A stretch of DNA of 64,000 nt, from positions 4,712,001 to 4,776,000 of the forward strand of contig NC_089430.1 of NCBI RefSeq assembly GCF_026210795.1, written 5' to 3'. Within the stretch, counting starts at the first letter, position 1. Every line of letters starts with the position of its first letter. Under the pieces are notes generated by a model. It was not told the DNA's origin, searched no databases, and saw only the letters and a program-made list of their open reading frames with translations. Position numbers and translations under genes: made by a program. This stretch comes from Rhizophagus irregularis. Taxonomy: Eukaryota; Glomeromycota; Glomeromycetes; Glomerales; Glomeraceae. Below, piece by piece: positions 51,945-64,000 of this stretch.

Positions 51945-52620
51945 GGATAGACGGATTGTAACACTACATGCCGTCAAAGTTCATCAAGAAATTTTTCAGG
52001 TGATATATAGCGATATATCACTTTATCGATATATATCACATTATTTAGAATGTGATATATATCGATAATAATCACACTCGTCGAGTAGTATCGATATAGA
52101 TAAAAATGATAAATCATCAAATTTAAACCTAACAGCTAAATGATAAATATTGATATTTAATATAAATAATAAACAATTGATATTTAACATGAATAATAAA
52201 CAATCGATATTTAACTTTAAACATCTTAAACGATAAACATTTTTATTTAATCATCATAATATTGCAATATACAAATAAAACGAAATAAAAATATAATAAA
52301 TACAAATTTTATATCATATTAAATATAGTAATTCTACTCATAAATTTTAACCTGAACTCCAAAGGGACGGAATTGATGAAACCTACAAGAAAAGTAAATA
52401 TAAACGTTAGCAAAAGTTTCTAATTAAATAAAATAAAATAAAAAATCTAGTTCACAACAGGATGTTGCAAAACTAGAATAATGGCAGAATCTAAAAATCT
52501 ACACACCAAATTTCACATGTCCAAAAGCCCAACTGTCTAAAAAAAGAGAAAGTTAAGCTGATACCTAAAAAAAAAATCAGTTTTTTCAAATAAAAATCAA
52601 AAAAAAAAAAATATTTTTAA
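51945..52620. other. Intergenic, simple-sequence rich
   Basis: Begins with ATATATCGATA-type palindromic words (about 52000-52100). The rest is AT-rich, and toward the right it grades into the exon-like array, where one further poor unit (about 52510-52566) may exist. No gene. Confidence 0.35.
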
Positions 52621-52633
52621 AGCTTCAATTTAC

Positions 52634-53906
52634 CGATCCAAGTCACCAAGGAAGATCAGTATCTAATAAAAAAAGAAATAAAGTTAATCCAATTTTTTTC
52701 AAAAGAAAAAATTCACAAAAAAAAAATTTTGAAGACTTACCTAAGGTCGAAAGTTTTGAATGTGTCTAAACAAAGAGCCGATAAAATTAAACTTTTTTTT
52801 TTTTAAAATAAAAATAAGTTTCAAAAAAAAGTCTTCAAAACTACCGATTTAAAGTGGTAATGTCAAAGTTGACCTAACTAGAAAAAAAAAGAAATAAAAA
52901 ATTAAAAATTTTATTTTGAAAAAGAAACAAAAATAAGTTTCGGAATGAAACCCTCAAAACTTACTGATCTAAAGTCTAAAGTCGAAGCCATTATATACCT
53001 AAAAAAAAGAAAAAAAATTAGAAATTTTTACTTTAAAAAAAAGCCAAAAAAGTTTCAAAACGAAAAGAAACTTTCAAAACTTACTGATCTGAAATGAAAG
53101 ATTGAAGCCGATAATATGCCTAAAAAAAAAAAGAAATTGTTTAAAAATTTTTTATTTAAAAAAAAAGAAATAAGTTTCAAAGCAAAACTTTCGAAATTTA
53201 CCGATCTGAAGGCTGACTGAAGCTGATACCTAAAAAAAGAAAAAAAAATAGATTACCGTATTTTGCTATTATTAAGTACCCCCAAAAATAAGCACCCCGG
53301 CCAGAATTATGGCGATTTTGGCCAGAATTATGAGCATCTTGGCCGGCATTAAGTGCAAAAAAGGGGTGCTTAATTACTGCCAAATATGGTATTTTTTTTT
53401 TAAAAAAAATACCTAATTCAAAAGAAAGAAAGAACTTTCAGAACTTACCTATCAAAAGCCTAAAAGGAAGATTAAAGGTGATATCTAAAAAAAAAGAAAA
53501 AAAATTAGTTTTTTTTTTCAAAAAAAAAATATTAAGTGCTTTGAAGCTTTTGCTTCAAAACTTACCTATCCAAAACCTAAAAGGAAGAAAAGTCGATATA
53601 AAAAAAAAAATGATTTTTTTTCAAAAAATATCAAAAGATGTTTTGAAGTTGTAGCTTCAAAACTTACCATATTATGCCAAAATTCAAAGCTGCGTCTGAA
53701 TCTGAGATATTAAAAAAAAAAAAAAAAATTATTTAAAAAAGACTGATTTCACTCGTCCAGACTCGTCTAAAAAAAAGGAAAAAATATGAAGCGTTATAAA
53801 CGTTTTGTTAAACAAAATAAATTTTAATCGTTACAATTCCCTTACTAAAATCAAATTCCACGTGTTCAGCCCTTACCAAAATTCAAATCCACGCAACCAG
53901 ACCTGT
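52634..53906 (-). repeat. Tandem array of tiny exon-like units bounded by splice-like sites
   Basis: On the minus strand, short GC-richer segments of 25-36 nt alternate with AT-rich spacers of about 75-105 nt. Most segments are followed by a GTAAG/GTAAA-type donor and preceded by a T-run ending in TAG. Clear units on plus coordinates: 52634-52662, 52741-52765, 52844-52877, 52965-52998, 53085-53119, 53202-53229, 53449-53484 and 53877-53906. Poorer units lie at 53566-53600, 53668-53710 and out to about 54110. Several units are related (CTGATCTGAA.., AGTCGAAGCC..), so the array arose by tandem duplication. Lengths are not multiples of three. One spacer is enlarged by a MITE. Transcription and splicing cannot be shown from sequence. 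Confidence 0.5.
53255..53390. mobile_element. MITE inside one spacer of the exon-like array, 136 bp
   Basis: The inverted ends are ACCGTATTTTGC and GCCAAATATGGT, with inverted subterminal words TTAAGTACCCC / GGGGTGCTTAA and several GGCCAGAATTA words inside. The 3-bp duplication is ATT (53252-53254 and 53391-53393). Subtracting it brings this spacer (53230-53448) back to about 80 nt, the usual size in the array. Confidence 0.65.
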
Positions 53907-55253
53907 CTAAAAAATAGAAACGTTAATAATCGTTACTGTAAAAATAAAAAAAAAATAAGGAAACTAACCACTGAATTCCAAAATGTTTAAAGACCTGGCT
54001 ATCTAGAATTTTTTACGCATCCGAAGGTCGAAATGTGGCAAACCCTAAAAAAAGAAAGGTTAGTAAGGCCAAAAAAAATTAACATTTCCACAAGAGATCC
54101 GCTGAAATGAAAGTGTTACCTAAAAAATAAATTCATAATTTTTTTACTTGGTGAAAAGCGGTTAATTTAGAGGATGAAAGAGAGGAGGAAACGAAAAGAA
54201 AGGGAGAGAGGAGAACGAGAGAGAAGAAGAACAAAAGAAGAGGGGAAAGGTAAAAATGGAGGAGAGGAGGAAAAAGGGAAAAACGGAAAAGAGGGAGGGG
54301 GATTTTATTAAAAAAGTTTAAAATAGTTTAAAAAAAGTAGATTAGTATTATGTGATACACGTAATACATAATTTTATAAAATAGAGGGGATTATAATTTT
54401 TTTTCCAACAGAGTGGAGAAAAATTATAAAGATGATGAGTTGGAATTCAAGTAGTTTCAACTTGGACGGTAGTAATCATGTAAATAAAGATAACAAGCAC
54501 CTGTTTTGTTCAAAGAAATACAAAAAGCTAACGTCGAGCAAGTCGTTGTAAAAGAAAAGGGATAAAACCAAAGAGGTGGTAAGTTTGTTAGTAAAGTATC
54601 TGTCATTTATGGTCGTAGGTATTAGCATAGATTTTGATTAAAAGTTAAATTAAAATCATAAATAGCTAGTACGTTTTGGTATATTCAATTTTTTTTGTTT
54701 TTTTTCGTTTTGGATAGTTAGTAGATAGATACTTTATTAGGAGATGTAATGACGTCTAAATTATAACAAATTGTTGTATAACAGATAATAATTGTTATAA
54801 TATTAATAAAGTTAATTAAAAAAAATAATAATAATTTTTTTTTATAACATATCGAGATAATAAAATAAAATAAAATAAATTTATTTGGGGATTGCTAACC
54901 ATTGGGGGTTTTTTCCAAATATGTCACATGATGTACAATATAGAGTAAATTAGTAATTTTATTAATCGGCTGATGGATAATTTTTTTAATTTCTGAATGT
55001 TTGATCGGCGAAACTAAAATTTATGAAATTTTATTTGCAAATACTAAAATTTAAGTAAAAAATCACTGGCTTTATTTTTAATGAAGTGATGCAAATAAAA
55101 AAAACAATAACAATAAATAAATAGATAATAAAATTACAATGATCAAGGAGAAAGATGCTAATAAAAAAATGAAGCAACAATGGAGTAATGGAAAGTAATA
55201 GAAGATGAAAGGGAGTAAAAAAGAGTGTGATAGGAAACAAAAAGGAGAAATAG
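53907..55253. other. Intergenic, purine-rich patch, no clear gene
   Basis: The left part (to about 54125) holds the degenerate end of the exon-like array. At 54172-54300 there is a purine-rich GAGGAGAGG-type tract. The rest is AT-rich with no gene. Confidence 0.4.
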
Positions 55254-61630: not shown

Positions 61631-61769
61631 ATCACGTTAATGAATTTTATTTCAAAATCCACAAAAAAAATTTTTTTTTTTTTTGCGCTTTTTATAAAAA
61701 AAAAAAATAACAAATTACAAGATTATTTTATTAAAATTTCCATTTATAGTAAGCATAATAAAATATGCA
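61631..61769. promoter_or_regulatory. 5' flank of the channel gene
   Basis: AT-rich, with long A/T runs directly upstream of the start codon. No clear TATA box at a fixed distance can be named. Confidence 0.3.
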
Positions 61770-62760
61770 CGGTAAACCAATTAATTAATTTATTTGATGA
61801 TAAAGTCAACTTGATTAGATAGAAAAAAATTAAAATTTTACATGTATGGTACAAAATTTTACGCCAAAGAGAACGATAAGAAAAAAATTTTTTTTATTGT
61901 GTAGGATAAAATAGGAAATTGAAATCATATGAATTCAAACATTATGTAAAAGAATAGTTCCAGTTTAATTTTGTGAGAAATTGATAAGTTTCTTCTTGAA
62001 ATTTATTTATTTAATTATTGATTTATTTGCATGAACGAGTTTAAAAAACTAGATTTTATGATTAAGTTTATTAGCATAATGGAATACGATCGATAAATCA
62101 ATAACTTATTTGACGAAGTTAAATTATTTAATTGGACAAAAAAATTAAAAATTAAAATTTTGTAATGCATAATGCATATGCATGTGTTTAGTACAAAATT
62201 TTGCGCCAGAGAGAACAATAGATAAAATTCTTTTTTTTATTGTAGCTTTTTTTTTATTGTGTAGGATAAAATAGGAAATTGAAATTATACGATCCTATAA
62301 AAAAATTTCTGGGAAAATTGATCAATTTTCTAAAAAATTTTTATAGGGAGAATTCATGTAAAAGAACAGTTCCAGTTTAATTTTGTTATTCTTGAAATTT
62401 ATTTATTTAGTTATTGATTTATTTATAAACGAGTTTAAAAACTAAATTTTAAGATAAAGCTTAATAGCATAATGAAAATATGCACGGTAAAATCAATTAG
62501 TTTATTTGACGAAATTAACTTTTAATTGAACAAAAAAATTAAAAATTAAAATTTCATTATGCATAATGCAGAGTACAAATTTTGTGCGATAATTTTTTTT
62601 TATTGTGGCTTTAATTGTGTAGGATAAAATAGGAAGACAAATGTTGTTTAGTACAAAATTTTGCGTCATAGATAATAATAGAAAAAAATTCTTTTTTTAT
62701 TTTGGCTTTTTTTATTGTGTAGGATAAAATAGGAAATCCATTATTCATAAAAAAATCAAT
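61770..62760. repeat. Tandem repeat with about 360-bp period
   Basis: The word TGTGTAGGATAAAATAGGAA recurs at about 61899, 62259, 62617 and 62717, giving periods of 360, 358 and 100. Accompanying words AGTACAAAATTTTGCG, GTTCCAGTTTAATTTTG, TTATTTGACGAA and TAATGCATAATGCA recur in the same order. There are two full and two partial copies. The second copy carries a small MITE absent from the first. Confidence 0.75.
62293..62348. mobile_element. CCCTATAA-family mini-MITE, 56 bp, with empty site next door
   Basis: The ends (T)CCTATAAAAAA and TTTTTATAGGG flank a short palindrome around TTGATCAA. The first C of the left end is mutated. The paralogous site in the previous tandem copy reads uninterrupted (..CATATGAATTC.. 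at about 61927), whereas here it is split as ..TACGA[element]AGAATTC.., so the insertion is directly visible. The presumed 3-bp duplication is CGA/AGA with one change. Confidence 0.7.
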
Positions 62761-62888
62761 AAGTTCTCTTCTATAATTCTATTACATGCGAAACTTTAAT
62801 TTGTTTATGTTCGAATGCATGCATGAATGAATTAAAAAACACCAGATTTAAGTTTAATATCAAACTATCTTGTCTATGTATCTAATAA

Positions 62889-64000
62889 GGATCCGAAACG
62901 GGTATATGATAAGTTTCGCATCTCATTACATACAAAACTTTAACATTTTTATAAAAGAACGTTTCTAGCGTTCTTTATTCTTTTTTTTTTGTAGGTTTCG
63001 GTACTCCAAGGTTCCCGAAACGGTAAGTTTCGCAACATCTTGTTGCGAAACTTTAAAATTATTTTTTTATTTTTTCAAAGAACGTTTCTAACGTTCTTTA
63101 TCTTTTTTTTTTGTAGGTTCGGTACTCAATATTTCCAAACTTTAACATGGTAAGTTTAAACTTGAATTTTTTTATATTTTTTTTTCGCTAAGAACGTTTT
63201 ACTTATGTTCTTATTTTATTTTTTTTAGAGAACGGTAAGCCGGGGAAAGGGATTTTATTTTTTTAAAAAAAAATCTTTTCGTTAAGAACGTTTTACTAAC
63301 GTTCTTTTTTTAAATTTTTTTAAGGAACGCTTCCTGGACCATTCAAGGTGAAATTGATGCAAGGTAAGCTAGGGGAAGGGATTTTTTTTTTTCTCTTTTT
63401 TTTATTTTTTTTCGCTAAGAACTTTTACTGACGTTCTTCTTTGATTTTTTTAGATGGATACTATAACCAAAGAAATGCAAACCCAACGAAAAATTTATAA
63501 TACAAAAAAAAAAATAACGTGGTGAGAACGGCTTCCTAAGATGGAACGGATCAAGGTAAGCCGAGGGAAGGGGAATTTGTTTTTTTAAAAATTTTTTTTC
63601 GTTAAGAACGTTTACTAACATTCTTCATTGTCTTTTTTTTTAGAGAACGGCTCCCCGGACGAAATGGATATGAGGTAAGTTGGAGAAAATATAATATATT
63701 TTTTATTAAACAAAACGTTGACCAACGTTTCGATTTTATTCTTTTGTAGGTCCACGGTCCTGTTAGTTTCTGGGCGGAATTTGAAGGTAAAACTTCAAAA
63801 TTCTTTTTTTTTTTACTTTATTTAAATGAGACATTAGCTAACGTTTCAATTTTATTTTTTGTAGGTTTTCAGCTTTCCGGACGCCTCTTGGACGGAATTT
63901 CGAAGGTATTCCTTCGAATAAATTTTTTCTATTAATTTTATCTAGTGAACGTCATGTTCCTTTTTTTGTAGGTCCAGAACACCGCCAGACTCCATTTCAA
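62889..64000 (+). repeat. Tandem array of micro-exon-like units, continuing past the window
   Basis: At least eight short GC-richer segments are each preceded by a T-rich tract ending in TAG (once AAG) and followed by GTAAG/GTAAA/GTATT: 62995-63022, 63117-63149, 63229-63234 (6 nt), 63325-63363, 63454-63555, 63644-63674, 63750-63786 and 63865-63905. A ninth opens at 63972 and is cut by the window end. A poorer unit precedes them near 62889. Most spacers (50-110 nt, very AT-rich) contain an inverted pair AGAACGTT..AACGTTCT just before the T-tract. The segments share words (GGTACTC, GAACGGCT, CCGGACG, GCGGAATTT). The four last segments joined leave two of three frames open for about 45 codons. 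Coding is possible but not proven. Confidence 0.55.

What the first reader, a model, noticed from the sequence alone, without database searches (positions are those of the whole stretch)
62889..64000. Array of micro-exon-like units with splice-like borders and a hairpin in the spacers
The units are 6-41 nt (one 102 nt), each framed by T-run-TAG and GTAAG. They are GC-rich, while the spacers are very AT-rich and mostly carry the inverted pair AGAACGTT/AACGTTCT just upstream of the acceptor. This is not a normal gene, where exons are unrelated, nor a plain satellite, where the whole unit is alike: here the splice-like borders and exon-like cores recur while the cores vary. It could be a micro-exon gene making combinatorial peptides, a repeated 5' leader, or a repeat family that hides itself by splicing. 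The array is open at the window edge, so the main body may lie to the right.
Basis: partly seen in the sequence, partly recalled or inferred. Interest (0 to 1): 0.8.

Follow-up and report, generated by a model that had tools for sequence, protein, structure and literature searches.

The report
Transposon-borne arrays of intron-like repeats
In what looks like the genome of a plant-root fungus, hundreds of dispersed repeats are built from short non-coding pieces separated by what look like spliceosomal introns, a good number of them carried inside DNA transposons; whether cells really splice them has not been tested.

Summary
Window 62902-63971 has eight complete cores (6-102 nt, 44% GC) between nine spacers (66-94 nt, 24% GC). 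Each spacer starts GT and ends AG; an AACGTT inverted pair is exact in three and partly kept in four more. The array ends about 320 bases past the window edge. It is one old copy of a dispersed repeat: 371 units in 26 loci, and 748 exact branch-hairpin-plus-TAG sites genome-wide against 7 for the reversed pattern. A second, decayed array lies on the minus strand at about 52.3-54.0 kb. Several copies are the inside of non-autonomous DNA transposons of two kinds: Plavaka-type (TIR CATCGGGAAATTTTTT, 2-bp target duplications) and CACTA/tnp2-type (TIR CACTGGTCGAAAT). Cores are non-coding: no length bias mod 3, stops in every frame, 8 of 79 indels divisible by 3. They diverge faster than spacers. 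Across divergent units GT, CTAAC and AG stay in register, and outer pairs of the branch hairpin show compensatory changes. A peptide-making micro-exon gene is not supported. Best reading: a transposon-borne, tandem, non-coding intron/exon module. Splicing itself is unproven without RNA.

The parts
62902..62994 (+). first, weak spacer (GTATATG...TTTTGTAG) with branch-side inverted pair AAAGAACGTTTCTAGCGTTCTTT at 62954-62976
62995..63022 (+). core A, 28 nt
63023..63116 (+). intron-like spacer A: GTAAGTT, donor-side hairpin 63025-63053 (13-bp stem), branch hairpin 63077-63099 enclosing TCTAAC, acceptor TTGTAG
   Evidence: fold z -5.61; HMM hit 62999-63113, E 1.1e-11
63117..63149 (+). core B, 33 nt
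63150..63228 (+). intron-like spacer B, branch hairpin with one arm changed
63229..63234 (+). core C, 6 nt
63235..63324 (+). intron-like spacer C, branch hairpin 63284-63306 enclosing ACTAAC; acceptor is AAG
63325..63363 (+). core D, 39 nt
63364..63453 (+). intron-like spacer D, branch hairpin degenerate
63454..63555 (+). core E, 102 nt, stop codons in all three frames
63556..63643 (+). intron-like spacer E, branch hairpin AAGAACGTTTACTAACATTCTT with one arm changed
63644..63674 (+). core F, 31 nt
63675..63749 (+). intron-like spacer F, branch hairpin 63713-63730
63750..63786 (+). core G, 37 nt, ending in the left arm of the donor hairpin (63780-63799)
63787..63864 (+). intron-like spacer G
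63865..63905 (+). core H, 41 nt, ending in the left arm of the donor hairpin (63899-63918)
63906..63971 (+). intron-like spacer H, branch hairpin degenerate; the array continues past the window to about 64316 (L005 2316)
52330..54000 (-). second, more decayed array of the same build on the minus strand: GGTAAG/AGTAAG/GGTAAA donors, several followed by hairpins, T-run AG acceptors
   Evidence: read and listed; HMM support weak (best E 9.8e-4 and 1.1e-3), one branch-hairpin anchor at 53018 with donor and AG

Best explanation
The array is one degenerate copy of a large repeat superfamily whose tandem unit (about 120 nt) is an intron-plus-exon module. A non-coding core of about 40 nt is followed by a spacer of about 80 nt with the signals of a U2-type intron: AAG|GTAA donor, a hairpin at or straddling the donor, CTAAC branch site in or at the loop of an AACGTT/AACGTT hairpin, T-tract, and an AG that puts the next core 22-27 nt after the branch A (286 of 360 units). 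The unit spreads in two ways: tandem duplication of units, and transposition of whole arrays as the inside of non-autonomous CACTA-type elements moved in trans by Plavaka-type or tnp2-type transposases. Any sense transcript would be cut into many micro-exons by the host spliceosome, leaving a short non-coding RNA. Shown here: the anatomy, its dispersal, the transposon ends and target duplications, transposase-coding partners with the same ends, the lack of coding, the register of the splice signals, and compensatory changes in the outer pairs of the branch hairpin. Inferred: transcription, splicing, transposition in trans, and that selection for splicing (not only shared descent or DNA-level palindrome upkeep) keeps the signals.
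For: Dispersal: 133 places from 40 of 193 scored candidates; 371 units in 26 loci, one strand per locus. Signals in 39 representatives under 72% identity, GT not required: G 87%, T 97%; C79 T85 A97 A100 C72; first AG at +19..+26 from the branch A in 79% against 15% in base shuffles. Independent loci: in 10 loci not used for the model, 38 branch-hairpin anchors all lie on one strand per locus; of 37 testable, 31 have a donor-like site 30-85 nt upstream against 15% in base shuffles, 17 of those 31 reading GGTAAGT. In the window, 4 of 16 such anchors have both donor and AG, all four in the two arrays; the other 12 have neither. Hairpin: outer pairs 7-9, not used to choose the fold, are Watson-Crick in 212 of 288 cells against 64-84 when one arm is slid; pair 8 shows all four pair types (63 of 96 against 25.5 shuffled). 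Transposon: 16-bp TIR 326 hits against 29 control; identical 2-bp flanks in 8 of 9 copies judged; Plavaka domain E 6.6e-25 in L037 with the same ends; second TIR 247 against 3, partner L049 with Transposase_21 E 2.5e-11.
Against: No RNA was available, so not one junction is proven. Units are related by descent, and the first set was found with a model that includes the signals, which inflates conservation; shuffles ignore relatedness. Between close copies only GT is quieter than the spacers (7 of 321 = 2.2% against 532 of 8811 = 6.0%); CTAAC (59 of 828 = 7.1%), AG (23 of 318 = 7.2%) and the hairpin arms (branch side 241 of 2625 = 9.2%, core-end arm 106 of 1215 = 8.7%) are not (pairs share loci). 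Branch pair 10 shows no signal (50 of 96 against 49.9). Donor-hairpin support is weaker: 84 of 100 fold, 216 of 420 outer cells pair against 92-162 slid. The commonest donor in the transposon arrays is GTAAA (179 units), weaker than GTAAGT. The window copy has neither TIR. Of 8 stretches folded, 4 had z of -4.1 or below, the others -2.16, -1.83, -0.90 and -0.87; the last two did not cover a whole intron in register. One family-1 copy (L028) and one family-2 copy (L017) lack matching target flanks.
Confidence: 0.6

Rival explanations
1. A plain transposon-internal tandem repeat that is never spliced: the GT/CTAAC/AG pattern is inherited from one captured intron-exon pair, and the palindromes are kept by DNA-level processes (template switching) or serve transposase binding.
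For: Arrays are tandem, several lie inside TIR elements and units are related by descent; variation inside the arms is largely C-to-T/G-to-A at CpG, as expected of a methylated silent repeat; AG, CTAAC and the arms are not quieter than the spacers between close copies.
Against: Loop letters that a palindrome does not need (CT of CTAAC, GT of the donor) are kept in diverged units, and different-looking arrays keep donors, 17 of 31 GGTAAGT, at the right distance.
Confidence: 0.25
2. A functional non-coding RNA locus family whose product matters: the spliced exon chain, or hairpin introns that feed small-RNA pathways (mirtron-like).
For: Two stable hairpins per intron in four of eight stretches folded (z -4.1 to -5.6), compensatory changes, and a 3' region that is 90-100% identical in the 40 scored places of 157 candidates while arrays differ more.
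Against: Cores change fast and lengths vary; no Rfam family reaches its threshold in four loci; no small-RNA data at hand; the hairpins are two short ones, not one intron-long foldback as in a mirtron (recalled).
Confidence: 0.1
3. A micro-exon gene family making variable peptides.
For: Many cores are 39-45 nt long, so an in-frame ancestor of 42-nt exons is possible.
Against: No mod-3 bias, stops in all phases, 8 of 79 core indels divisible by three and faster change in cores than in spacers; no better in ten independent loci (41 unique cores, 17/14/10 mod 3; 11, 14 and 17 of 41 with a stop).
Confidence: 0.05

Closest known systems
Non-autonomous CACTA/EnSpm-type DNA transposons (Plavaka and tnp2 families)
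   Same: Terminal inverted repeats, short target duplications, transposase-coding partners with the same ends; Plavaka is reported as prevalent in R. irregularis DAOM197198 (PMC11075540, passages read).
   Different: The inside is a tandem array of intron/exon-like modules instead of a deleted transposase gene, and the same module sits in two families with unrelated ends.
Introners / introner-like elements (PMC9860276, passages read)
   Same: Repeats that carry splice signals and spread with transposon hallmarks (TIR, TSD).
   Different: An introner is an element that makes new introns in many genes; here introns come in tandem with their own non-coding exons, and the TIRs bound the whole array, not one intron.
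Stwintrons with internal symmetry in Hypoxylaceae (PMC8469720, PMC9024468; search listing only)
   Same: Repeated fungal introns with internal symmetry.
   Different: Those are nested introns in genes; these are serial introns around non-coding cores.
Micro-exon genes (recalled, as in schistosomes)
   Same: Many very short exons in a row.
   Different: No reading frame and no exon symmetry here.
Short interrupted repeat cassettes, SIRC (PMC10342631; search listing only)
   Different: No splice-signal order or branch hairpin is mentioned in the listing.
SP7-like effector genes of R. irregularis (PMC11333574, abstract and passages)
   Same: Repeat-containing family reported in the same fungus, considered first.
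   Different: SP7 genes are described with a conserved intron before the first repeat and the motif Y[KR]Rx[AP]x[AP]; the array has many introns and no coding frame.

Membership tests
Plavaka-type CACTA element (non-autonomous), for family-1 copies such as L021, L039, L040 | paired terminal inverted repeats | tested here: met
   Perfect 16-bp TIR pair in L021, L009, L039, L040; L028 has an altered left end and L007 lacks the right end; 326 ends genome-wide against 29 control
Plavaka-type CACTA element (non-autonomous), for family-1 copies such as L021, L039, L040 | short target-site duplication | tested here: met
   Identical 2-bp flanks in 8 of 9 judged: L035-L040, L021 TC/TC and L009 TA/TA; L028, with its altered left end, does not match; L041's left flank was not shown
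Plavaka-type CACTA element (non-autonomous), for family-1 copies such as L021, L039, L040 | transposase-coding partner with the same ends | tested here: met
   L037 Plavaka PF18759 E 6.6e-25; PF18759 hits lie inside six TIR pairs (compared by eye; one search listed 100 of its 326 ends)
Plavaka-type CACTA element (non-autonomous), for family-1 copies such as L021, L039, L040 | actual mobility in trans | not testable with these tools
   no strain comparison or excision assay
CACTA/tnp2-type element (non-autonomous), for L010 and L017 | TIR pair, target duplication, coding partner | tested here: inconclusive
   TIR CACTGGTCGAAAT pair in both; flanks ACT/ACT for L010 but TGT/ATG for L017; partner L049 with the same ends has Transposase_21 E 2.5e-11
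Plavaka or CACTA element, for the window copy | TIRs flanking the array | tested here: not met
   Family-1 TIR: no match with up to 2 changes in window plus L005; family-2 TIR: one two-change match of 13 bases at 68596, judged chance; three 11-base inverted pairs around the array look like chance
U2-type spliceosomal introns | GT donor, branch CTRAY, AG acceptor in order and spacing | tested here: met
U2-type spliceosomal introns | removed from RNA by splicing | not testable with these tools
   no RNA data
Introner | single intron copies inserted at new sites in coding genes | not tested
   Three pattern hits without a listed neighbour were opened (L056-L058) and by eye show two or more units each; insertion into coding exons was not searched
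Introner | transposon ends coincide with the intron's ends | tested here: not met
   TIRs bound elements of 3.3-5.1 kb holding a whole array, not one intron
Micro-exon gene | open reading frame across exons, exon symmetry | tested here: not met

The most novel reading that the evidence does not exclude
A new kind of repeat: transposon-carried arrays of true spliceosomal introns with their own non-coding micro-exons, whose branch sites sit in a hairpin kept by compensatory mutation. If spliced, each copy is a chain of up to about twenty introns with no coding purpose, which would make the fungus a natural laboratory for how RNA structure around a branch point affects splicing and for how splicing of transposon RNA interacts with RNAi.
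Probability: 0.45. Interest if true: 0.8.

Novelty: new variant of a known kind. Interest (0 to 1): 0.62.

Why it matters
Passages of PMC11075540 say about two-thirds of R. irregularis transposable elements remain unclassified; this superfamily, probably hundreds of arrays, could explain part of that and could be misread as multi-exon genes by annotation tools. If the arrays are spliced, they give many natural variants of one intron, with and without intact hairpins, for measuring how structure at the donor and branch point controls splicing, and they bear on why a transposon would carry introns it cannot need for coding.

Tried and rejected
SP7-like effector gene: my first idea from one core that reads like a peptide repeat. 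Dropped after PMC11333574 passages (different motif, a conserved intron before the first repeat) and after the coding tests.

tRNA/SINE origin: the terminal core holds a T-arm-like hairpin (GTTGG-AATCGAA-CCAAC; likeness recalled), but ARAGORN, run with the bacterial code, finds no tRNA in five loci and Rfam nothing over threshold in four.

Covariation inside the donor-hairpin arms: first test weak (7.55 matched of 10 against 6.9-7.1 with partners shuffled), because the arms are self-complementary TTCGAA and vary mostly at CpG; replaced by the outer-pair test.

Transposon ends for the window copy: none found. The 61.7-62.9 kb sequence to its left is a separate repeat.

A covariance model for a genome-wide unit count was not built; the pattern count is exact-match only. 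Host introns were not collected for comparison. Literature: one search returned no paper; the rows listed by 36 (15 of 164), (15 of 53; 10 of 36; 15 of 148; 4 of 4) showed nothing on such arrays; these cover only the held open-access library.

Full report
Source. The window is G000:C2:4712001-4776000 of a 146.7-Mb genome in 32 contigs, about 27% GC. I take it to be Rhizophagus irregularis DAOM197198: PMC10234402 (passages) reports 32 scaffolds, 146,773,001 bases and scaffold N50 5,085,394, and contig C13 here is exactly 5,085,394 long.

The observation. Between 62902 and 63971 there are eight complete cores and nine spacers. All nine spacers start GT and end AG after a T-run. GC is 0.435 in cores and 0.242 in spacers. 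The AACGTT inverted pair is exact in three spacers (6 rows in the window against 0.06 expected, four of them in the array), keeps one arm in four more and is degenerate in two (by eye). A second inverted pair lies at the donor in some spacers. The array goes on to about 64316 in window coordinates, ending in a core with GTTTGTTGGAATCGAACCAACTGG. The bases after that match a different set of places: five others on C2 between 4.23 and 4.57 Mb and a few weaker ones elsewhere (40 of 119 candidates scored). At two C2 places read, they follow what looks to me like the end of a gene (by eye).

A dispersed family. A search with 401 bases of the array gave 133 matching places from 40 of 193 scored candidates. 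An HMM built from 21 units of three loci found 371 units in 26 loci, always on one strand per locus (L001-L003, which overlap others, and L006 were left out). The series of spacings between branch sites is nearly the same in several loci (L009, L011, L021, L025, L028), so whole arrays were copied.

Carriers. Aligning four copies with more flank showed sharp ends: 5' CATCGGGAAATTTTTT and 3' AAAAAATTTCCCGATG. With up to one mismatch this end occurs 326 times against 29 for the reversed control. L039 (3.3 kb, 16 unit hits on the array strand and 1 on the other) and L040 (3.7 kb, 20 and 2) are complete copies flanked by AT on both sides. Identical 2-bp flanks occur in 8 of 9 copies I could judge: L035-L040, L021 and L009. 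L028 has an altered left end and unlike flanks, and L007 has lost its right end. Elements of 6.4 kb with the same ends (L035, L036, L037) gave no unit hit and code for a transposase: L037:2134-2853 hits Plavaka PF18759 at 6.6e-25. PF18759 hits fall inside six of the listed TIR pairs (compared by eye). L010 and L017 have other ends, CACTGGTCGAAAT, 247 exact occurrences against 3; their flanks are ACT/ACT in L010 and unlike in L017. L049, a 9.3-kb pair of those ends, has a 789-aa frame with Transposase_21 at 2.5e-11. So the same module is carried by two element families with unrelated ends. The window copy has neither. I did not establish the ends of every locus.

Non-coding cores. Of 274 cores (256 unique) the lengths mod 3 are 94/83/79 for the unique ones, and 70, 71 and 137 of 256 contain a stop in the three phases (total stops 87, 100 and 172 against about 196 in base shuffles, so two phases have fewer stops than random, which the recurring arm and core motifs may explain). 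In 14 pairwise comparisons of copies, cores differ more than the rest of the spacer in 13; the exception is L010/L017. Sums over pairs, which share loci, are 533 of 4584 sites in cores and 532 of 8811 in spacers; 8 of 79 core indels are multiples of three. Much of the change inside the hairpin arms is at CpG. In the window the 102-nt core has stops in all frames. Cores do share a motif: C[CT]GGA occurs in 116 of 256 against 12.7 shuffled, and in 11 of 41 cores from independent loci against 1.6. It may be a splicing enhancer or only descent.

Splice signals. In 39 representatives below 72% identity, chosen without requiring GT: G 87%, T 97%, then CTAAC at 79/85/97/100/72%; the first AG lies 19-26 nt after the branch A in 79% against 15% in base shuffles. 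Spacers average 55 nt from donor to branch A and 25 nt from there to the next core. These units were found by a model that contains the signals, so I looked elsewhere. The pattern AACGTTN{1,4}CTAACGTTN{12,21}TAG occurs 748 times, reversed control 7. The first 100 listed hits form 55 clusters, with 68 hits in clusters of two or more. I fetched ten of these loci, picked by me, outside the first set (L050-L059). Using only the branch hairpin as anchor there are 38 anchors, all on one strand in each locus. Of 37 testable, 31 have a donor-like site 30-85 nt upstream against 15% in base shuffles, and 32 have AG at the right distance against 32%; the AG was partly built into the choice of loci, the donor was not. 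Of the 31 donors 17 read GGTAAGT. As a control, the same anchor scan over the whole window gives 16 anchors: 4 have both donor and AG, three in the given array and one in the second array; the other 12 have neither. Against this, between close copies only GT is quieter than the spacer (7 of 321); CTAAC (59 of 828), AG (23 of 318) and the hairpin arms (241 of 2625 and 106 of 1215) are not.

Hairpins. I chose the loop by the six inner pairs and then tested the outer pairs in 100 representatives below 80% identity (GT required in this set). Branch hairpin: 96 of 100 fold; outer pair 7 is Watson-Crick in 85 of 96 (47.6 shuffled), pair 8 in 63 (25.5; GC 23, CG 21, AT 10, TA 9), pair 9 in 64 (37.3), pair 10 in 50 (49.9, no signal). 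Sliding one arm by 1-3 bases lowers pairs 7-9 from 212 of 288 to 64-84. CpG decay can turn C-G into T-A on both sides, but not into A-T or G-C. The donor hairpin is weaker: 84 of 100 fold and 216 of 420 outer cells pair against 92-162 slid. Shuffles ignore relatedness, so this is support and not proof. Of eight stretches folded, four have z of -4.1 or below, the others -2.16, -1.83, -0.90 and -0.87; the two weakest did not cover a whole intron in register.

How it probably works. The unit behaves as an intron/exon module that duplicates in tandem and rides in transposons. If transcribed in the sense direction, the host spliceosome would remove the spacers one by one and leave a short non-coding chain of cores. 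I think the branch hairpin helps present CTAAC or shortens the distance to the donor; that is inference. Why an element without coding capacity keeps introns is open. Possible reasons are stability or export of a transcript, avoiding RNAi that is triggered by poorly spliced RNA (a link known from Cryptococcus, recalled; papers seen only in the listing), or harmlessness when inserted in genes.

Known or not. The rows listed by searches of the held library showed nothing on such arrays (most listings were capped; 61 was empty). The R. irregularis TE paper PMC11075540 (passages) mentions Plavaka and many unclassified repeats, and the word intron does not occur in its main text. I file it as a new variant of non-autonomous CACTA-type elements, with an introner-like aspect that fails the introner definition because the transposon ends do not coincide with intron ends.

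Noticed in passing
window 52330-54000, minus strand: A second array of the same build (GGTAAG/AGTAAG/GGTAAA donors, several followed by TTTTGAAG..CTTCAAAA-type hairpins, T-run AG acceptors), more decayed (HMM support weak); it would also explain the 120-bp tandem repeat reported at 52883-53181.
   Followed up: partly
L031 5800-6001 with L021 1-660: Upstream in the family-1 element sits another tandem family of about 105 bp with a changed but still paired donor hairpin (TTCGGAG..CTCCGAA) and no AACGTT branch hairpin that I could see.
   Followed up: partly
L035-L037, L041: Plavaka-type elements also carry frames on the opposite strand (for example L035 4500-6116); the two pieces sent to Pfam gave nothing above a curated cut-off, perhaps an accessory protein.
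   Followed up: partly
L038 (C2:4703802-4705633, left of the window): A 1.7-kb element with the same CATCGGGAAATTTTTT TIR and AT/AT flanks but a different inside (only one unit hit): a second non-autonomous type.
   Followed up: partly
window 61700-62880: A separate repeat (motif GTGTAGGATAAAATAGGAAAT in several copies) directly left of the array, with partial matches on other chromosomes.
   Followed up: partly
L056: A two-unit fragment of the superfamily lies just after the stop codon of what looks like a mitochondrial carrier gene (my reading, not searched), so array pieces may sit in host 3' UTRs.
   Followed up: no
L010 1300-1540: A long imperfect palindrome of ATACACATATC-type repeats interrupts the array.
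   Followed up: no
L010 4030-4500: A short tandem satellite AATTCAGAATAAAATTTACCGC near the CACTGGTCGAAAT end.
   Followed up: no
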